Shown: positions 2,495 to 9,204 of the stretch, one piece after another
Layout of the letters: every line of letters begins with the position of its first letter
Position numbering within the stretch: the first letter of the stretch is position 1
Origin: Acidobacteriaceae bacterium
GTDB lineage: Bacteria; Acidobacteriota; Terriglobia; Terriglobales; Acidobacteriaceae
Direction of reading: 5' to 3'
Assembly: GCA_030041045.1 (NCBI GenBank)
Contig: JASHOQ010000128.1
Span: 1 to 64,000 of the forward strand
DNA: 64,000 nucleotides
Position numbers and translations under genes: made by a program
Notes under the pieces: generated by a model
Databases searched by the model: none
What the model was told of the DNA's origin: nothing
Seen by the model: the letters and a program-made list of their open reading frames with translations, nothing else

Positions 2495-3928
2495 TCAGGA
2501 AGCGGCTTCCGGCACCGGGGCGGGCATGGTGGAGGGTGCGGCAGGCGGCGGCTGCACCGGCGCCAGCGGCAGCGTGAAGTGAAACGAGGCGCCGCTGCCC
2601 AGATCGCTTTCCGCCCAGATGTGACCGCCGTGGGCCTGCACGATGTGCTTGACGATGGCGAGGCCGAGGCCGGTTCCGCCGGACTCGCGGGAGCGCGCTT
2701 TGTCCACGCGATAGAAGCGCTCGAAGATGCGCTCCAGATGCTCGGAAGCGATGCCGGGGCCGAAATCCTGGATGGTGAACTGCACCTCATTTGCGAGCTC
2801 GCGCGCGCCCACGCGAATGCGCTTGCCTTCTTTGGCATACTTGAGCGAATTCTCAATGAGATTGCCGAAGACCTGGTTCATGGCGTCGGGATCGGCCATC
2901 ACCAGCGCCTCCGGCGCGCCGGCTGACTGCAGCTTGATGCCGGAATCGACGAGCAGGCCGCCGAGGGATTCGATCGCATCCTTCACCAGGGCGCTGGAGC
3001 GCATGGGCTGCAGGCTGAGCTTGTAGTCGGGGCTCTCTACGCTGGCCAGGGCGAGCAGATCTTCGGTGAGCCGGTTCATGCGCGAGGCATTCTTGAGAAT
3101 GATGGCGAGGAATTCGCGCGTGGTCGCCGAGCCGGGATTGGGATCTTCGATGAGCGTCTCCACGTAACCCTGAATGGAGGTGAGCGGGGTGCGCAGCTCG
3201 TGGCTCACGTTGGCGACGAATTCGCGGCGGGATTGCTGCGCGGCTTCAATGCCGGTGACGTCATGGAGAACCACCAGCGCGCCGCCCGAGGGCAGGGGCG
3301 CGGCATTGATCTCAAAGACGCGGCCGTGCGCCAGGGAGCCGGCGCGACCGAAGCAGAGCTCCCGGCGCTCCAGCGCCACGCGCACGCACGAGAGCAGCTC
3401 GGGGTCGCGGACCGCGTGAATGAGCGGGCGGCCGGGCCGGATCTGCATGCCGGCGATGCGCTGCATGACCGCGTTCGACCAGCGCACCAGGCCTTCCGCA
3501 GTGACCGCCACCACGGCCTCCTGCATGGAGTCAAGCATCACCGCGAGCTCGTGGCGGCTGCTTTCGAGCTCGGCGAAGTCCTGGCCCAGGCGCTCGGCGG
3601 TCCGGTTCAAGGCCGCTTCCATCGGCGAAAGCTCATCCCGGCTGGTCTCATTGAGCCGCGCGGAGAGGTCGCCGTCAGCGATGCGCCGGGCGAAGTTCAT
3701 CACCTGCTGCAGCCGCCCGGAGATGCGCAGGGACATCCATGCCGCAATGGGCAGCGCCACCGCCAGGGCAATCACGCCGGACCAGAACGCCTCGTGGCCC
3801 AGCGAGTGCAGCGTGGCGCCGGCCGTGTGCTCCACAAACCCGCGGAAAAGAACCTCCATCACCAGCGTCTGAAGAGCCAGCAGAAGGAAGAAAAGACCGA
3901 GAAGCTTGATAAAAACCTTGGAAGTCAT
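2495..3928 (-). CDS. phoR: phosphate-regulon sensor histidine kinase PhoR
   Basis: Membrane histidine kinase, 477 residues, expected to phosphorylate the neighbouring PhoB-type regulator under phosphate limitation. It has two N-terminal membrane segments (about residues 9-30 and 47-70), a HAMP region (about 70-120), a PAS domain (about 125-225), then HisKA with the phospho-acceptor motif FVANVSHELRTPL, and HATPase_c with N-box NLIENSLKYA, DFGPGI and GTGLGLAIVKHI. The C-terminus is proline- and alanine-rich. Only a short extracytoplasmic loop lies between the membrane segments, typical of PhoR, which senses through the Pst system rather than binding phosphate itself. Gene order with pstS and phoB supports the name. 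Confidence 0.92.
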   Translation of the reverse strand: MTSKVFIKLLGLFFLLLALQTLVMEVLFRGFVEHTAGATLHSLGHEAFWSGVIALAVALPIAAWMSLRISGRLQQVMNFARRIADGDLSARLNETSRDELSPMEAALNRTAERLGQDFAELESSRHELAVMLDSMQEAVVAVTAEGLVRWSNAVMQRIAGMQIRPGRPLIHAVRDPELLSCVRVALERRELCFGRAGSLAHGRVFEINAAPLPSGGALVVLHDVTGIEAAQQSRREFVANVSHELRTPLTSIQGYVETLIEDPNPGSATTREFLAIILKNASRMNRLTEDLLALASVESPDYKLSLQPMRSSALVKDAIESLGGLLVDSGIKLQSAGAPEALVMADPDAMNQVFGNLIENSLKYAKEGKRIRVGARELANEVQFTIQDFGPGIASEHLERIFERFYRVDKARSRESGGTGLGLAIVKHIVQAHGGHIWAESDLGSGASFHFTLPLAPVQPPPAAPSTMPAPVPEAAS

Positions 3929-4057
3929 CGGGCCCTTTCCCCTCCCATTTTGCCCGTTCCGGAGGCTGGCGAATCATCGATCGCGCAAGGCATTGAACAT
4001 AGGGTGTTTCCGGCATCGGCAAAGGAAAACGGGAAAATCGCCTCGGGGTTCCGGCGA

Positions 4058-4756
4058 TCAATCGCTTCTGGGCAATTCAAATCGATAACCGGCTCCGCGC
4101 ACCGTTTTCAAATAGCGCGGATTCTCCGGATCGAGCTCGATCTTTTCGCGGATGCGGCGCACATACACGTCAACGGAGCGGGGCGTGACGAAGCGGGCAT
4201 CGCCCCACACCGCGTCCAGAAGATGGTCGCGGCTGAAGACGCGGCCTGGATGCCGCGCCAGGTAATCGAGCAGGCGGAATTCGGTGGCGGTGGTGGTGGT
4301 CAGCTCGCCGCGAACCTTCAACTGCATGGCGCTGGCGTCGATGACAATCTCCTCAAAACTGATCACTGCGGGCGTGGCCGGGCGCTCGAAGCGGCGCAGC
4401 ACGGCTTTGACGCGGGCCACGAGCTCGCGCGTCGAAAAGGGCTTGGTGATGTAGTCGTCGGCGCCCAGCTCGAGACCCAGCACGCGGTCGTTTTCGCCGG
4501 CGCGCGCGGTGAGAAAGATGATGGGCACCGTGGACAGCCCGTTGTGGTTGCGCAGGCGCCGGCAAACGTCGAGCCCGTCGCCGCCGGGAACCATGATGTC
4601 GAGCAGAAACAGCGCGGGCGGCTTGCGCTCCGCATCGGGAATCAGGCTGGTTGGAGTGTGGAAGAGGCGCGCCTCAAAGCCCGCCGCCTCAAGGTGATGC
4701 TGCACGAGCCGCGAGATATCGGCATCGTCTTCCAGAACAAACACGGATTGGCTCAA
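4058..4756 (-). CDS. phoB: PhoB-type response regulator (OmpR family)
   Basis: Transcription factor with an N-terminal receiver domain (EDDADISR acid pocket, LLDIMVPGGDGL with phospho-acceptor Asp, LTARA, and Lys in TKPFSTREL) and a C-terminal winged helix ending RTVRGAGYRFELP. The frame is open up to 4840, but the best start is the TTG at 4756, which has GCGAGGG nine bases upstream and puts the receiver four residues from the start (232 residues, normal length). Upstream ATG codons would add an N-terminus not seen in this family. It is first in the phoB-phoR-pstS set; 129 bp separate it from phoR. Confidence 0.9.
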   Translation of the reverse strand: MSQSVFVLEDDADISRLVQHHLEAAGFEARLFHTPTSLIPDAERKPPALFLLDIMVPGGDGLDVCRRLRNHNGLSTVPIIFLTARAGENDRVLGLELGADDYITKPFSTRELVARVKAVLRRFERPATPAVISFEEIVIDASAMQLKVRGELTTTTATEFRLLDYLARHPGRVFSRDHLLDAVWGDARFVTPRSVDVYVRRIREKIELDPENPRYLKTVRGAGYRFELPRSD

Positions 4757-4888
4757 ACGGTCAGCCCTCGCCCCGGCGAAGGTTAAAAAACGGGAAACAG
4801 AGACGCCGAGACCCATGAACAGAGTAATGCACGGAGGCAAACAGATTGCAAACGTTTGATGAATTTGGCCCGCCGGGCCAAGGGCCGC

Positions 4889-6211
4889 TCAGCGCGAATC
4901 TTCAACGGCTTTGAGCGGCACCGGCAGCGGCTCTTTGGAGCGAAGAGAGGCAGGAATGGATGGCTCCGCGACAAACGTGCGCAGCGGGATTCGGGGAGCG
5001 ATCGCCGCCGCTGCCTGCCGGCTGATCTGCGCGTCCGTGCCCGAGGCCGGGTCGGCCGATCCGCTGCTTTGACCCGCCCTCCGGCGATTGCGGCGTTTGC
5101 GCACCTCGTCGGAGGCAACCAGGATGAGCACCGTAAAGGTGACGGCAACCAGCAAAATGGCCACCAGTCCGTGCAACTGCTCGAGCGGCGCGCCCACACC
5201 GTCGCCCACGTCTCGAACCAGGAGCGCGAGACCAACGAAGACGAAGAGGAGGTGGGTGCAGAAGACGCGCAGAGAAGCTCTGCCCAGAGTCAGAAACGGT
5301 TCCACGGCCACGAATTTGACCAGATGGCGGCGCAGCCAGTAAACGACGATGGTAAACGTGACCATATTGAGGACGCGCAAAGGCCCGATCTGCCACTTGT
5401 CGAGTGGAATGTCGAGCGCCTGCCAGGTCAGGTGCGCTCCCCACCAGCCCCAGCGAATGCCCACGAAGAACAGGCACAGCAGGCACGAGGCGATGGCCAG
5501 CCAGCCCGGCGGATCGCCAAACGTCTCGCGCCGTGTGGCGGACCGCGCTCCCACCCACAGCCCCACAATCCAGATCGCCTGCCAGGCGAAGAGATTGAAG
5601 GCGCCGGTTTCCTGGATGGGAATTTTGAGATGGGTGAGATGGACAACCCAGTTGTGCACCAGGTCGCGCAGGCCAAACTGGGCCAGCAGCCAGACGCATG
5701 CGCTCAAAAACAAAATCTTCTTCCATCCGCAGCGCACCGCGGCCGAGAGCAGCACGGGCGTGAAGAAGAGAAAGATTACGTACATGGGAAGAATGTCGAG
5801 CAGCGGCGGGCAGTAAAGCAGCAGCACCGAGCCGATGATGGCGACAAACGGGTGCGCGAGATAGAAATCGAGAAGATTCGAGATGGCCGCCTTGTGCGTA
5901 TGCACGGCAAACGCAGCAGCAACCGTAAACACCAGCGCGAGCATGACCAGGTGATAGCCGTAGATCTGGAGCGATCGCTTCCACAGGCGGCTGCGCACGC
6001 CCGAGGCGTCCTCGACCAGTTCCCGGAAATAAAGGCGGCCGACGAGGAGCGCAGAAATGAAGACGAATCCTTCGGCCGAGGAAATGAAGCCGATGGGCGA
6101 ATTGACAAAATCGCTGAAATGCGTGGGCAGATGGGTGAGCGTCATCCAGACCAGGAAGAGCCCGCGCAACGCATCGAGTTCAGGCCGGCGTTCAAGACGG
6201 GGAAGCTGCAT
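4889..6211 (-). CDS. opgC: OpgC-type multispanning acyltransferase
   Basis: Integral membrane protein of the OpgC family, 440 residues, with about ten hydrophobic segments. In proteobacteria OpgC adds succinyl groups to osmoregulated periplasmic glucans; the substrate here is unknown. The N-terminus RRPELDALRGLFLVWMTLTH is the diagnostic start of the OpgC fold, followed by SSAEGFVFISALLVG. A hydrophilic tail rich in Arg, Ala and Ser covers roughly the last 70 residues. The ATG at 6211 is chosen because longer frames run into the downstream end of the TROVE gene; no strong ribosome site is visible. No opgG or opgH lies nearby, so a role in another surface glycan is possible. Confidence 0.75.
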   Translation of the reverse strand: MQLPRLERRPELDALRGLFLVWMTLTHLPTHFSDFVNSPIGFISSAEGFVFISALLVGRLYFRELVEDASGVRSRLWKRSLQIYGYHLVMLALVFTVAAAFAVHTHKAAISNLLDFYLAHPFVAIIGSVLLLYCPPLLDILPMYVIFLFFTPVLLSAAVRCGWKKILFLSACVWLLAQFGLRDLVHNWVVHLTHLKIPIQETGAFNLFAWQAIWIVGLWVGARSATRRETFGDPPGWLAIASCLLCLFFVGIRWGWWGAHLTWQALDIPLDKWQIGPLRVLNMVTFTIVVYWLRRHLVKFVAVEPFLTLGRASLRVFCTHLLFVFVGLALLVRDVGDGVGAPLEQLHGLVAILLVAVTFTVLILVASDEVRKRRNRRRAGQSSGSADPASGTDAQISRQAAAAIAPRIPLRTFVAEPSIPASLRSKEPLPVPLKAVEDSR

Positions 6212-6377: not shown

Positions 6378-7793
6378 TCAGGCAACCGAAACGCCATCGG
6401 CCCGCTCGAGTTCGACGATGTAGTCCACCACCGCCTCGCTCCAGCCATCGATGTGCGTCCACTCGCCGTAGCCGATGCCGTTCTTGAAGCTGGCCACGTT
6501 AATCAGGTAGTTGGTCCGGCCGAACGGATGCGCGCTGGAGGGCTTGTTCACCAGGTCGCAATCCTGCTCATCGGTAATCACGATGATTCTGTCCGCCTCG
6601 CCTCTCTCCTGCTTGCCGACATAGTCAATAACCTGCTTCAGGAAGATTCCGCCGCCACCGATCGCGCGCGCGGTCTTCTCATAGGCGAGCAGGTCGCGCA
6701 AGGCGAAGCCACGCCGCGGCGGAACAAGCATGGTTGCATGAATCCGCTTTCCGTCATCTCCCGCGGTTGCATAAACGGCGATTTCCTCCGAGATCTCCCG
6801 CAAGAGCATGGCAAGGGCGGCGGCCGCGCTCAGCCGGTCAAGCTCAGACTTACGTGAAATCTGCCCGTGCATTGAGCCGGAGCAATCGACAATCAGAACC
6901 GTCTTTCCCGCCAGCTTCCCGTAGCCTTCGAGACATTTGAACATCGCCTTCTCCAACTCGGGCTCCAGCCCGGGCGCGTGCTTGGCCGCGGAGACAAAGC
7001 GGAAGGGCAGGATTCGTTCGGCCTTCATCGCTCGCAGTCCCTCGCGCATCAGGTCCAGCTCCACGCCGGCCTTCTGCATATTGCGCAGGTTGCGCAGCAG
7101 GGCCATCGCGCCGAGCTTGCGGTCTGCCAGCAACCGTTCCCAGATCTCGCGCTTGTCGATGCGCCGGCCCTGACTGTCGCGGCCAGCCGCCGAAAGCGCC
7201 ACCTCCCACGTATCCGGCGTCGCCAGCTCATTCGCCGCCAGCCGCTTCCACAGCGCCGCCTGCGTCCCGTCCACCGGGCGCGCGTGCGACAGAAAGAGCA
7301 CGTCGCGCAGGCGAACCACGCCGGCGCGGTCGTACTTGGCCAGCTGGTACTCGTCGAACTTGGCGAATGCAGCGGCGAGCCCCTTTTTGACCTGCGCCGA
7401 AAGCGGCTGGCGCCCCGCAGCCCAGTAAATGGCCACAAACTCGCTCAGCTCATCGGCGCGCTGGATCACGCGCGCCAGGGTCTGAGCCACCAATGCGCGA
7501 TGGGTGGCATGACGCGCCATCTCCCGCACCAGCAGCAACGGTGCGTGCCGCAGCTTCATGCGCTCGCGCGCCTCGATGGCCAGCGCGGCTACCTGGGCCG
7601 GGGCCACCTGCGGCACCAGCTCGTGGATGCGCCCGGCAATCTGCACGCCATCTTCATAGAACTCGCCCTCCCACAACATGCAGGAGAGGACCGAGCGGCG
7701 CAGTGCCTGCTCGGGCGCAATCACGCTGGCGCGGGCTCCCTCGTGGGTCCGCGGCCCGGTCCTCTTCGCGTGCTTCAAAATGTTCAGGCGCAT
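6378..7793 (-). CDS. rsr: Ro60/Rsr-like TROVE-vWA RNA-binding protein
   Basis: Bacterial orthologue type of Ro60, the ring-shaped RNA-binding protein that holds Y RNAs and misfolded or damaged RNAs and works with exoribonucleases in RNA quality control. The 471-residue protein has an N-terminal alpha-helical HEAT-like TROVE region (about 15-290) and a C-terminal von Willebrand A domain. The MIDAS motif is intact: VDCSGSMHG with D303, S305, S307, and ITDEQD near 405-411. The ATG at 7793 has AAGGAAG upstream. Downstream in transcription is opgC; upstream are a tRNA-like element, a four-Cys protein and six further tRNA-sized elements, all on the same strand, which resembles the known linkage of rsr with Y-RNA genes. 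No rtcB or rtcA is present. Confidence 0.9.
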   Translation of the reverse strand: MRLNILKHAKRTGPRTHEGARASVIAPEQALRRSVLSCMLWEGEFYEDGVQIAGRIHELVPQVAPAQVAALAIEARERMKLRHAPLLLVREMARHATHRALVAQTLARVIQRADELSEFVAIYWAAGRQPLSAQVKKGLAAAFAKFDEYQLAKYDRAGVVRLRDVLFLSHARPVDGTQAALWKRLAANELATPDTWEVALSAAGRDSQGRRIDKREIWERLLADRKLGAMALLRNLRNMQKAGVELDLMREGLRAMKAERILPFRFVSAAKHAPGLEPELEKAMFKCLEGYGKLAGKTVLIVDCSGSMHGQISRKSELDRLSAAAALAMLLREISEEIAVYATAGDDGKRIHATMLVPPRRGFALRDLLAYEKTARAIGGGGIFLKQVIDYVGKQERGEADRIIVITDEQDCDLVNKPSSAHPFGRTNYLINVASFKNGIGYGEWTHIDGWSEAVVDYIVELERADGVSVA

Positions 7794-7879
7794 CGTGCTC
7801 TTCCTTTCTGCTCATGCACAACCTTGCCGGGGAAAAATCGGACGCGGCATTTGACACCGGCGCGCGCATCGCTGCGCAC

Positions 7880-7955
7880 ATCGGCGGCAGGATTCGAACC
7901 TGCACCACCGCTTTAGCGGTCTTCTGCCATTGAAGTATCCGTGCCCTGCGCCACC
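7880..7955 (-). ncRNA. tRNA-like element 1 (76 nt) upstream of rsr
   Basis: Read on the minus strand: a 7-bp acceptor-like helix (GGTGGCG/CGCCGAT, one mismatch) abuts a perfect T-arm (GCAGG, loop TTCGAAT, CCTGC) exactly as in tRNA. The centre has a D-arm-like hairpin (CTTC, loop AATGGCA, GAAG; 7921-7935) and a five-bp hairpin with only a four-base loop where the anticodon arm should be (7907-7920). Without a seven-base anticodon loop it cannot decode, so a tRNA mimic or Y-RNA module fits better than a tRNA. It lies 86 bp before the rsr start and may be part of the rsr transcript. Confidence 0.65.
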
Positions 7956-7966
7956 GGCAGGTGCTT

Positions 7967-8332
7967 TCACTCCCGTTCAAGCTCGGCAGCTATCTCCGCT
8001 TCGCCCTCCTCGCCCGCATCCTTTCCTTTTTCCTGCGCCGCCGCGGGGCAAGCCTCGGCAACGGCCGCAAATCCTTTCGTCCGCGCAGAGACAGGTCTCG
8101 CCGGCACGCGGATGGCCAGCTTCTCCATCTGCCTCCAGCTCGGACGATGCTTGTCATCGAAGCCGGTGCAGTCGAGCATGACAAACGGGACCACCATATC
8201 GGGGTACGTCTTGTTGCAGATCACCAGCCGATCCGACTCACGATAGCCGGTCATGGCCTGGGCCCAGGTGCAACGCAGGCACAGGTGCGCATTGCCCATC
8301 GGCATTCCGTTTTTGATGTTCACTCTGCTCAC
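7967..8332 (-). CDS. small four-cysteine protein of the TROVE locus, function unknown
   Basis: I do not recognise this family. The 121-residue product starts at GTG 8332; ATG codons at 8305 and 8299 are alternatives, and ribosome sites are weak for all. The first 75 residues look like a compact domain with four cysteines (C18-x2-C21, C39, C55), which could bind one zinc ion, and a conserved-looking block PFVMLDCTGFDDKHRPSW. The last 35 residues are Ala/Glu/Lys-rich and probably disordered. It sits between two tRNA-like elements and upstream of rsr on the same strand, so an RNA-related or Ro-partner role is a reasonable guess, but nothing in the sequence proves it. Confidence 0.55.
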   Translation of the reverse strand: MSRVNIKNGMPMGNAHLCLRCTWAQAMTGYRESDRLVICNKTYPDMVVPFVMLDCTGFDDKHRPSWRQMEKLAIRVPARPVSARTKGFAAVAEACPAAAQEKGKDAGEEGEAEIAAELERE

Positions 8333-8356
8333 GTCTGTCTCTTTTCTATCCGGATT

Positions 8357-8426
8357 GTTCCGGAAGGCCCTGGCCGGGGAACAAACGGGGCGGTCAACGG
8401 CGCTCTGGCCACTGAGCTACCCGAAC
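8357..8426 (-). ncRNA. tRNA-like element 2 (70 nt)
   Basis: The minus strand has a 7-bp acceptor-like helix (GTTCGGG/CCGGAAC, one mismatch), the universal TA at positions 8-9, and then a canonical D-arm (GCTC, loop AGTGGCCA, GAGC) at exactly the tRNA spacing. The 3' half lacks a recognisable anticodon arm and a T-loop; it contains TTTGTTCCCCGG, which recurs in other elements of the array. It is best read as a tRNA-derived or tRNA-mimicking RNA, not a working tRNA. Confidence 0.6.
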
Positions 8427-8456
8427 GCGCATCCAGAGCTCGCGCTCAAGACTCGC

Positions 8457-8519
8457 ATGCAGGGCGGGATTCGAACCCGCGACCTCCGGCTGTCAAGGCG
8501 AAGGAACCGCTTCCTACAC
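8457..8519 (-). ncRNA. tRNA-like element 3 (63 nt)
   Basis: The minus strand shows an acceptor-like helix with two wobble pairs (GTGTAGG/CCTGCAT) directly stacked on a perfect T-arm (GCGGG, loop TTCGAAT, CCCGC). Only 32 nt separate the 5' acceptor strand from the T-arm, against about 42 in a tRNA. That space holds a small GCG/CGC hairpin and no proper anticodon arm. The preceding bases CCGGTGG are shared with elements 1 and 5. Confidence 0.6.
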
Positions 8520-8570
8520 CACCGGCCAACGACAACGCTTCACAACACGCGTACCTAGAAACTCTGCGCC

Positions 8571-8640
8571 GGGGAACTTGCGAAGAGAGTGGGAACGGAA
8601 CCTCTGCTCTGCGGCGCCTTGTGCTTCAGGACTACGCCCC
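8571..8640 (-). ncRNA. tRNA-like element 4 (70 nt), weaker
   Basis: Ends can pair as a seven-position helix (GGGGCGT/GTTCCCC, one mismatch and two wobbles), followed by AG and a D-arm-like segment (CCT/AGG). No T-loop motif is present. It is included because its size, strand and the shared GTTCCCCGGC boundary motif match the neighbours. Confidence 0.4.
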
Positions 8641-8646
8641 CGCCCC

Positions 8647-8716
8647 GCGAAGTGACCCGTTCCGTCGGGGTCTCTAACCCCGCTCCTTGGCAGTGGAAGT
8701 AACTCGCTTCTTTCGC
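8647..8716 (-). ncRNA. tRNA-like element 5 (70 nt) with anticodon-arm-like hairpin
   Basis: Closed by GCGAA/TTCGC. Inside are a D-arm-like hairpin (GAAG, loop CGAGTTA, CTTC; 8696-8710) and a perfect five-bp stem with a seven-base loop TTAGAGA (8666-8682), the geometry of an anticodon arm with AGA in the middle. A canonical T-arm is missing. It starts with the array motif CCGGTGGCGAA. Confidence 0.5.
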
Positions 8717-8737
8717 CACCGGCGCGAACACTTCTAA

Positions 8738-8795
8738 GTTGGAATCCGGCGCGAAGCTCCCCCGTGCGCGCCGAATAACTTATTCCGGCGCCAAC
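8738..8795 (-). ncRNA. tRNA-like element 6 (58 nt), weaker
   Basis: The ends pair GTTGG/CCAAC. Inside is a stable hairpin formed by CGCC/GGCG around GAA/TTC with loop TAAGTTA, plus a GC-rich second hairpin. It is shorter than a tRNA and has no T-loop consensus. It is listed as a member of the array by position and strand. Confidence 0.35.
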
Positions 8796-8826
8796 AGACA
8801 ATGCGGCTAACTGACCGCTAAGTCAG

Positions 8827-8898
8827 CCCGAGGGAACAAACGAACGCAGTAACCTGTTCGAGTGTCAATCGAAGTACCTGAGTTCTTCGCCACTCGGG
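8827..8898 (-). ncRNA. tRNA-like element 7 (72 nt), three-way junction
   Basis: A perfect 6-bp closing helix CCCGAG/CTCGGG (8893-8898 with 8827-8832) encloses two perfect 5-bp hairpins, CGAAG/CTTCG (8870-8889) and CGAAC/GTTCG (8841-8860), each with a ten-base loop. This gives a cloverleaf lacking one arm. The 5' part (CCGAGTGGCGAAG) resembles elements 1 and 5 and the start of class II tRNAs; the 3' part carries TTTGTTCCC as in element 2. Confidence 0.6.
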
Positions 8899-8948
8899 TT
8901 AAGCTCGTGAATTGCAATTGATGCGCAGGAGGTGTGCCGAACGACCGG

Positions 8949-9041
8949 TTATGAATGGAACCCAGAGCACGCCCGGACGCCGGCGAGGCCCTCATAGGGC
9001 CATTCCAGCCTACGCATCGAGTTTTGCGTTTGATACTTCAT
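8949..9041 (-). CDS. candidate 30-residue ORF at the head of the tRNA-like array
   Basis: The ATG at 9041 is preceded by a good ribosome site (TAGGAG, eight bases upstream), and the frame runs 30 codons to TAA. The peptide starts MKYQTQNSMRRLEWPYEG and has no recognisable domain. It is the first possible gene of the array-rsr transcript, so it could be a leader peptide. Its DNA also contains inverted pairs GAATGG/CCATTC and GGCCCT/AGGGCC, so an RNA hairpin is an alternative reading. The flanking 9042-9204 is AT-richer than its surroundings and is the likely promoter region, though no confident sigma-70 or sigma-54 site was seen. Confidence 0.35.
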   Translation of the reverse strand: MKYQTQNSMRRLEWPYEGLAGVRACSGFHS

Positions 9042-9204
9042 CGGGCGTTCTCCTACGCATTCATTACTCTGCCATAACTCAACCGACTCATGCAAGAGGT
9101 TAGTGGAATAAATTTTCAGATGTTGCAATAAGTGAACGAATGTTACTTTGTGAATCTCGAGTAACTGAGCCTTTGGCCGGATCCACCGCCTCAAAGATCC
9201 GCAG

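What the first reader, a model, noticed from the sequence alone, without database searches (positions are those of the whole stretch)
7880..8898. Array of seven tRNA-sized RNA-like elements upstream of a Ro60/TROVE gene
Seen: on the minus strand, seven consecutive units of 58-76 nt each have pairing ends, and several carry true tRNA parts. Elements 1 and 3 have a perfect T-arm stacked on an acceptor-like helix, element 2 has a perfect D-arm with the TA linker at tRNA spacing, and element 5 has a seven-base-loop anticodon-like arm. None has all arms, and shared motifs (CCGGTGGCG, GTTCCCYSGG) recur. Known: bacterial Ro60 (Rsr) genes are linked to Y RNAs, and some Y RNAs contain a tRNA-mimicking module. 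Inference: this is a multi-copy family of tRNA-like RNAs serving the TROVE protein, rather than the one or two Y RNAs known elsewhere. A decayed tRNA cluster is the main alternative.
Basis: partly seen in the sequence, partly recalled or inferred. Interest (0 to 1): 0.9.

Follow-up and report, generated by a model that had tools for sequence, protein, structure and literature searches.

The report
Four Y RNA genes before Ro60
An acidobacterium carries a row of four different Y RNA genes just before its Ro60 gene, two of them built partly like tRNAs, and relatives carry up to eight; this could give one ring-shaped protein several exchangeable RNA partners.

Summary
The feature is real, but it is four RNAs, not seven. 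Inside sit four modules: a short loop (Y1), a conserved non-tRNA fold (Y2), a permuted tRNA with YrlA topology (Y3), and D/stem/T (Y4). Of 49 family TROVE loci with at least 4 kb upstream, 44 carry three or more such units (median 4, maximum 8). Both-sided pair changes are abundant. A model trained without Y3 recovers all four units at the same ends. Strong matches occur in 52 of 300 family genomes, 51 with TROVE. The operon also has a structured leader with a 30-codon ORF and encodes a four-cysteine protein without a known family. Transcription and binding to TROVE are untested. Best reading: exchangeable Ro60 adaptors. Outside the family, 5 of 13 TROVE loci scanned hold 7 to 30 tRNA genes, two with RtcB, which hints at tRNA damage.

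The parts
9066..9096 (-). promoter-like site C-TTGCAT-N18-CAGAGT with TGG just before the -10 (extended -10 type)
   Evidence: the pattern occurs just upstream of the leader in 29 of 46 loci and once in the window, both strands (128 kb), which is this site; sequence
8922..9059 (-). structured leader RNA, terminal helix TGCGTAGGAG/CTCCTGCGCA, 138 nt
   Evidence: 31-row alignment A4: 14 of 22 pairs with both-sided changes, 93.5% of cells paired against 34-45% when slid (rows chosen for terminal pairing, so that helix is biased); single-sequence fold z -3.09, 0 of 200 shuffles as good
8949..9041 (-). leader ORF of 30 codons inside the leader RNA, preceded by AGGAG
   Evidence: each of 46 leader rows gave an ORF (25-39 aa; the script required 24-45), ATG start in 43 and TTG in L078, L084, L094; the row of L090 was anchored at a wrong place; peptide alignment of 30 chosen rows, mean column identity 33%
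8827..8898 (-). Y1: short (class S) Y RNA, 72 nt
   Evidence: R1 31.8 bits (not in training); R2 78.5 bits (its own row was in training); A3 covariation
8567..8724 (-). Y2: class C Y RNA, 158 nt, module GGGGCGGGGGCGUAGUCC, not tRNA-like
   Evidence: R1 38.6 bits (not in training); R3 134.6 bits (its own row was in training); A1 covariation
8372..8527 (-). Y3: class P Y RNA, 156 nt, permuted tRNA module (anticodon-like arm, T-arm, closed acceptor-like hairpin, UA, D-arm) inside the basal stem
   Evidence: R1 99.1 bits, E 4.9e-18, not in the training set; Rfam YrlA 30 bits, below gathering; A2 covariation
7967..8332 (-). gene for a small protein with four conserved cysteines (121 aa, GTG start)
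   Evidence: homologues in 38 of 55 loci, in each of the 38 downstream of at least one unit, in 24 between units; C18, C21, C39, C55 invariant in 36 aligned rows; no Pfam or NCBIfam family at E 0.001, only single-member matches at E 0.02-0.1
7825..7959 (-). Y4: Y RNA, 135 nt, D-arm, stem, T-arm in normal order, then a GC hairpin
   Evidence: R1 63.7, R3 46.3, R2 42.8 bits at these ends, not in any training set; Rfam tRNA match 7887-7937; weak Deinococcus Y RNA match 7852-7959, 20.8 bits
6378..7793 (-). TROVE (Ro60/Rsr-like) gene, 471 aa, with a VWA-like domain
   Evidence: PF05731 E 4.5e-13; only TROVE match in the genome; aligned over 11-464 to PDB 9l5y, E 2.1e-26; no NCBIfam match

Best explanation
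The locus is one operon that makes several different Y RNAs and the Ro60-type ring protein that binds them. Shown: four units share one basal stem with conserved sequence marks, the same architecture is conserved in related genomes, and strong matches go with TROVE. Inferred: the TROVE protein binds the shared stem of each RNA, so that different RNAs compete for the same ring. The part that differs (a tRNA mimic in two orders of arms, a separate conserved fold, or almost nothing in the short form) then decides what the ring is joined to or closed against: an exonuclease such as PNPase, tRNA-handling enzymes, or nothing (gate only). The cell could thus make four kinds of Ro60 particle from one protein. 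Also inferred: one promoter drives the leader, the RNAs, the four-cysteine protein and TROVE, and the RNAs are released by processing.
For: Four units with the same ends by motif and pairing and by model R1, which had seen none of the window's units. Calling units by sequence motifs only, the flanking six-mers are fully complementary in 99 of 193 units, against a mean of 9 and a maximum of 17 in 500 partner shuffles. Both-sided changes at 24 of 34 (class P), 25 of 40 (class C) and 13 of 16 (class S) pairs; 0 of 500 shuffles reach any of the five measures; pairing falls from 93-96% to 38-56% when partners are slid. Of 49 family loci with at least 4 kb upstream, 44 have three or more units. At E 1e-6 or better, R1 matches 52 of 300 genomes, 51 with TROVE; TROVE is in 68 of 300. 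UACUUC-type mark and T-arm shared with the Rfam Deinococcus Y RNA consensus. [quoted passage not shown]
Against: No transcript and no protein binding was tested. In the motif-only test 60 of 193 units have four or fewer of six pairs; I think the last UUCC was often the wrong one, but this was not checked one by one. The vertebrate Ro site (a bulged C and a three-base bulge opposite) is not reproduced base by base; the internal loop UGGYGNA/NNNUUCC is only in a like place. The window's Y3 has a mismatch in its anticodon-like stem and a long acceptor-like hairpin. Unit number varies from 1 to 8 in the 49 loci, so no module is indispensable everywhere. Of 68 TROVE genomes 17 have no strong R1 match. 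The terminal and inner helices were used to choose the rows of A1-A3, so their pair counts are biased; the module helices were not.
Confidence: 0.6

Rival explanations
1. The units are real Y RNAs but do the same job: several copies simply raise the dose of Y RNA, and the differences between modules are drift.
For: Unit number varies from 1 to 8 in 49 loci; several class P copies occur in one locus, e.g. L041.
Against: The class C module is conserved across genera with covarying helices (19 rows), and the order S, C, P, four-cysteine ORF, last unit recurs; drift would not keep distinct folds.
Confidence: 0.15
2. The array is mainly a cis-acting 5' leader: TROVE protein binds Y-like hairpins in its own mRNA and shuts off its own synthesis.
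For: The window's units lie on the coding strand upstream of TROVE; Y4 ends 31 nt before the start codon; there is a structured leader with a short ORF.
Against: In 49 loci the distance from the last called unit to TROVE runs from 22 to 2,459 nt (missed units would inflate it), which does not suit a fixed cis element; in some other loci units lie downstream of TROVE (L050, L141); a cis switch would not need different modules.
Confidence: 0.13
3. A decayed tRNA gene cluster without function.
For: T-arms and D-arms are of tRNA type; some TROVE loci in other families of the phylum lie in real tRNA arrays, so an origin from tRNAs is plausible.
Against: Helices covary and the shared stem is not part of a tRNA; Y1 and Y2 have no tRNA parts; presence follows TROVE; no intact tRNA in the window.
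Confidence: 0.02

Closest known systems
YrlA (Rfam RF02553), the Y RNA of Salmonella rsr-yrlBA-rtcBA and others
   Same: Basal stem made of both ends, then T-arm, closed acceptor-like hairpin, UA, D-arm: the same permuted order as Y3 (alignment; description in PMC8394870, passages).
   Different: Window Y3 scores 30 bits against a gathering score of 69, and 0 of 120 family genomes reach it (best 60). Class P often adds an anticodon-like arm: 25 of 38 rows are gap-free there, 24 of the 25 with U33 and all 25 with a purine at 37; the part of the Rfam consensus shown (positions 23-86) has no such arm, and PMC8394870 names D, T and acceptor arms only.
Deinococcus radiodurans Y RNA (RF01053)
   Same: Y4 shares the UACUUC-type mark and a T-arm near the end of the module.
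   Different: 20.8 bits against a gathering score of 80.
Vertebrate Y RNAs (four in humans, one Ro60)
   Same: Several Y RNAs with one lower stem and different loops for one Ro60 (PMC4726728, passages; human Y1, Y3, Y4, Y5 in the abstract of PMC4030889, listing).
   Different: No sequence kinship claimed; there separate Pol III genes, here an apparent operon.
Listeria phage CKA15, Rsr-like gene near three strongly transcribed regions (PMC12282133, passages)
   Same: Its authors suggest that one or more of the three regions may be Y RNAs: a possible earlier case of several Y RNAs by one Rsr.
   Different: A phage; the RNAs there are only proposed and no modules are described in the passages seen.
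Anabaena trn operon with 26 tRNA genes, repressed with rtcB by TrcR (PMC10272220, passages)
   Same: Some TROVE loci outside the family lie in tRNA arrays with HNH genes (L134, L140, L141) or have RtcB in or beside the array (L134, L137).
   Different: The window itself has no tRNA, and the genome's RtcB match is on another contig.

Membership tests
bacterial Y RNA (Rsr-bound RNA) | gene linked to a TROVE/Rsr gene | tested here: met
bacterial Y RNA (Rsr-bound RNA) | 5' and 3' ends pair into a basal stem with conserved sequence marks | tested here: met
bacterial Y RNA (Rsr-bound RNA) | separate module beyond the stem | tested here: met
   Y2, Y3, Y4; minimal in Y1
bacterial Y RNA (Rsr-bound RNA) | bound and stabilised by the Rsr/TROVE protein | not testable with these tools
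   needs pull-down
bacterial Y RNA (Rsr-bound RNA) | expressed as a small RNA | not testable with these tools
   no transcript data
YrlA RF02553 (Y3) | score at or above Rfam gathering (69 bits) | tested here: not met
   30 bits; 0 of 120 family genomes
YrlA RF02553 (Y3) | permuted T-arm, acceptor-like hairpin, D-arm | tested here: met
Deinococcus Y RNA RF01053 (Y4) | score at or above gathering (80 bits) | tested here: not met
   20.8 bits
tRNA | complete tRNA in normal order | tested here: not met
   ARAGORN 0 in the window
rsr-rtcBA RNA repair operon | RtcB beside TROVE | tested here: not met
   the one RtcB match is on contig C115, the window on C125 of 142 contigs

The most novel reading that the evidence does not exclude
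The locus is a Ro60-borne bank of tRNA decoys and adaptors for times of tRNA damage. Circularly permuted, end-less tRNA mimics with varied anticodon-like loops draw anticodon nucleases, tRNA-modifying or tRNA-surveillance enzymes to the Ro60 ring. Relatives that keep real extra tRNA arrays, sometimes with RtcB, around the same gene would answer the same threat by replacement and repair.
Probability: 0.2. Interest if true: 0.92.

Novelty: new variant of a known kind. Interest (0 to 1): 0.76.

Why it matters
Why an organism keeps several Y RNAs for one Ro60 protein, and what the variable part of each does, is open in animals and bacteria (my view, from the reviews seen in passages). Here is a bacterial operon with up to eight Y RNAs of at least four architectures, one of them (class C) a conserved fold with no tRNA likeness, in a family that includes cultured strains with such arrays (Terracidiphilus gabretensis S55, Occallatibacter savannae AB23). 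It makes the question testable by deleting single units. It adds RNAs that Rfam does not call at gathering score in the family loci tried, a four-cysteine protein family without a name, a structured leader with a short ORF, and a link between some Ro60 loci and extra tRNA arrays.

Tried and rejected
Single-sequence folding as proof: not significant for the four units. Decayed tRNA cluster: rejected by covariation. Rfam at gathering score in 12 related loci found none of the units as a Y RNA, only one ordinary tRNA (L044) and one tRNA-like piece (L056). Structure of the four-cysteine protein: two predictions, mean pLDDT 52.7 and 58.8, too poor to use; the Foldseek search of the second gave one match, E 8; its profile matched no PDB sequence at E 1. 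Weak family matches of single members (best E 0.02 in Pfam, 0.05 in NCBIfam for a 'YcgN family cysteine cluster protein') were not taken as kinship. The loose caller made one false call that I know of, inside the small ORF of L073, removed from the final counts, set the end of the L048 unit at -1435 too far, found no units in L051 and L050 where R1 or R2 find some, and in nine loci of other families made only two calls that look like chance. R1 is not specific in tRNA arrays: it also matches neighbouring ordinary tRNAs (e.g. L137 4356-4475), and ARAGORN in turn calls a tRNA inside units (L047 2706-2776, probably L137 4595-4660). The promoter pattern misses 17 of 46 leaders. I did not align the short T-class units or the last units, so their covariation is untested.

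Selection of rows: of the 68 family genomes with a TROVE match 45 were fetched with long flanks, those with high-scoring, near full-length matches; with 12 named loci this makes 57 loci, 55 after two duplicates. The loose caller gave 195 calls in the 55 loci. A1 (19 rows), A2 (38) and A3 (37) were picked by hand from these by class; A2 leaves out the window's Y3, A1 and A3 contain the window's Y2 and Y1. A4 holds 31 of 46 leaders, those of the main type with 7 or more of 10 complementary end bases. A7 holds 36 of 38 four-cysteine proteins, two near-copies dropped. The cut at E 1e-6 for strong R1 matches was set after seeing the list.

Full report
What is in the window. The TROVE gene is the ORF 6378-7793 on the minus strand: PF05731, E 4.5e-13, followed by a VWA match just below its cut-off. 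It is the only TROVE match in the genome and aligns over residues 11-464 to PDB entry 9l5y, 'TROVE domain-containing protein', E 2.1e-26. ARAGORN finds no tRNA in the window. Rfam gives one match above gathering, a tRNA-like one at 7887-7937. Below gathering it gives YrlA at 8397-8488, a tRNA match at 8456-8519 and a Deinococcus Y RNA match at 7852-7959. Together these say tRNA-like but in the wrong order, as in a Y RNA.

The unit. Four stretches begin and end alike: six bases X, then UGGYG, then an inner helix of about eight pairs with a mismatch, then a UACUUC-like mark, a module of variable length, the other inner strand, a loop ending in UUCC, and the complement of X. They are Y1 8827-8898, Y2 8567-8724, Y3 8372-8527 and Y4 7825-7959.

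Relatives. The TROVE protein has matches in 68 of 300 genomes of the family; named loci of the same kind come from Terracidiphilus, Occallatibacter and Acidobacteriaceae MAGs. I read the upstream DNA of 45 of the 68 and of 12 named loci; two were duplicates, leaving 55. Calling units by sequence motifs alone, without using the pairing of the ends, gave 219 five-prime motifs, 193 with a UUCC downstream. Their flanking six-mers are fully Watson-Crick complementary in 99 of 193 (five or six pairs in 133), against a mean of 9 and a maximum of 17 full matches in 500 shuffles of partners, with 60 different six-mers; no such unit occurs in 126.7 kb of control sequence. With a looser caller (2 calls in 174 kb of control DNA) and one false call removed, 44 of 49 family loci with at least 4 kb upstream have three or more units; the median is 4 and the largest number 8, in L041; five have one or two.

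Classes. Class S is a bare stem with a short loop (Y1). Class C carries a conserved fold with a hairpin of the type GRGGC-GUA-GYCYC and a GAANCACAAGG-like sequence (Y2). Class P carries the permuted tRNA (Y3). The last unit before TROVE often has a D-arm-like part, a stem and a T-arm in normal order (Y4). A recurring order is S, short T units, C, P, the four-cysteine gene, last unit, TROVE, with parts missing in many loci. Covariation: class P 24 of 34 pairs, class C 25 of 40, class S 13 of 16 with both-sided changes; none of 500 shuffles reaches the observed values, and sliding the partners drops pairing from 93-96% to 38-56%. Terminal and inner helices took part in the choice of rows and are biased; the module helices did not.

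The permuted tRNA. In class P the order is: anticodon-like arm (for instance UUCGC-CUGUUAA-GCGGG), variable loop, T-arm, an acceptor-like stem of about seven pairs closed by a small loop, UA, D-arm. This is a tRNA opened between positions 26 and 27 and closed at its ends. Of 38 rows, 25 have no gap in the anticodon-like arm and 13 do; 24 of the 25 have at least four of five pairs, 24 have U at position 33 and all 25 a purine at 37, with 15 different anticodon triplets. Two pairs of this arm show both-sided changes, one fails in 15 of 38 rows and one in 8, so its support is weaker than that of the other helices. The window's own Y3 has a mismatch there and a long acceptor-like hairpin.

Models. 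R1 (class P, trained without any window unit) finds the four units in the 64-kb window with the same ends at 99.1, 63.7, 38.6 and 31.8 bits; the next best match has 14.2. R3 and R2 give 134.6 and 78.5 bits to Y2 and Y1, whose rows were in training, and 46.3 and 42.8 to Y4, which was not. Across 300 family genomes 76 match R1 at E 0.001 or better; at 1e-6 or better 52 do, 51 of them with a TROVE match, and the exception lies near the end of a 3,316-base contig. Of the 17 TROVE genomes without a strong match, 10 show only TROVE fragments and two others (G029, G126) have 250 and 438 bases of upstream DNA. Of the 24 weaker genomes 20 lack TROVE; several of their matches cover only model positions 26-104 and look like neighbouring ordinary tRNAs, but one of them, G082, has a divergent TROVE beside the match.

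Other parts of the operon. A leader RNA at 8922-9059 has a terminal helix, inner helices with both-sided changes (14 of 22 pairs) and a fold better than 200 shuffles (z -3.09); it holds a 30-codon ORF at 8949-9041. Upstream is a promoter-like site, its pattern seen in 29 of 46 loci. The ORF 7967-8332 encodes a protein with four invariant cysteines found in 38 of 55 loci, in each after at least one unit and in 24 between units; no Pfam, NCBIfam or PDB-sequence family was accepted, and the structure predictions were too poor to use.

Beyond the family. TROVE matches occur in 15 of 297 genomes drawn from the phylum, six of them of the window's family; I read the other nine loci. ARAGORN tRNA genes in four of the nine, one in a fifth, none in four; a Clostridia MAG (L051) has seven. 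In all, 5 of 13 loci scanned outside the family have seven or more. The four genomes hold 58 to 74 tRNA matches each, against 47 in the window's genome, so I infer extra sets. RtcB lies in the array of L134 and beside TROVE in L137; L134, L140 and L141 have an HNH gene in the array. L137 has a YrlA above gathering, 70.6 bits. R1 finds units beside TROVE in several of these loci (e.g. L134 82, L051 99, 90 and 57 bits), but it also matches tandem ordinary tRNAs there. Units also occur in a Desulfonema-labelled MAG (two) and in a Bauldia-labelled MAG (four by the first scan; two by the second; three by R2).

How it may work. [quoted passage not shown] PMC4726728); Salmonella has yrlB and yrlA with rsr and rtcBA, and its authors consider that YrlA might compete for an anticodon nuclease (PMC7790460). 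I therefore propose exchangeable adaptors on one ring. Shown: architecture, conservation, link to TROVE. Inferred: binding, processing, partners.

Novelty. Y RNAs are known. An array of several architectures with one TROVE gene I did not meet in ten searches nor in passages of eight papers; the nearest is a Listeria phage whose three transcribed regions near an Rsr-like gene may include Y RNAs (PMC12282133). But the key papers on bacterial Y RNAs (Chen 2013 and 2014, Sim and Wolin 2018, Sim 2020, Wang 2018) are not held and may mention multiple copies. I rate it a new variant of a known kind.

Noticed in passing
L134, L137, L140, L141 (other families of the phylum) and L051 (Clostridia MAG): TROVE genes with Y-like units lie in or beside arrays of 7 to 30 ARAGORN tRNA calls; L134 and L137 have RtcB, and L134, L140, L141 an HNH endonuclease gene.
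   Followed up: partly
window 8922-9059 (-): Structured leader RNA with a conserved short ORF whose Shine-Dalgarno-like AGGAG lies in the terminal helix; could be a translation-coupled switch.
   Followed up: partly
window 7967-8332 (-): Four-cysteine small protein, often with an acidic tail, conserved in the arrays, no family found.
   Followed up: partly
L111 (G082), about 3820-4956: A divergent TROVE gene missed by the protein search lies beside a weak R1 and YrlA match.
   Followed up: partly
L049 (Bauldia-labelled MAG), 4217-4961: Units of the form ATGGTG...TTCATC...TTCC upstream of TROVE in a presumed alphaproteobacterium: multi-unit arrays are not limited to Acidobacteriota.
   Followed up: no
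L050 (Cesiribacter andamanensis), 3023-3253: R2 (41.6 bits) and R1 (35 bits) match downstream, not upstream, of the TROVE match at 1370-2656.
   Followed up: no
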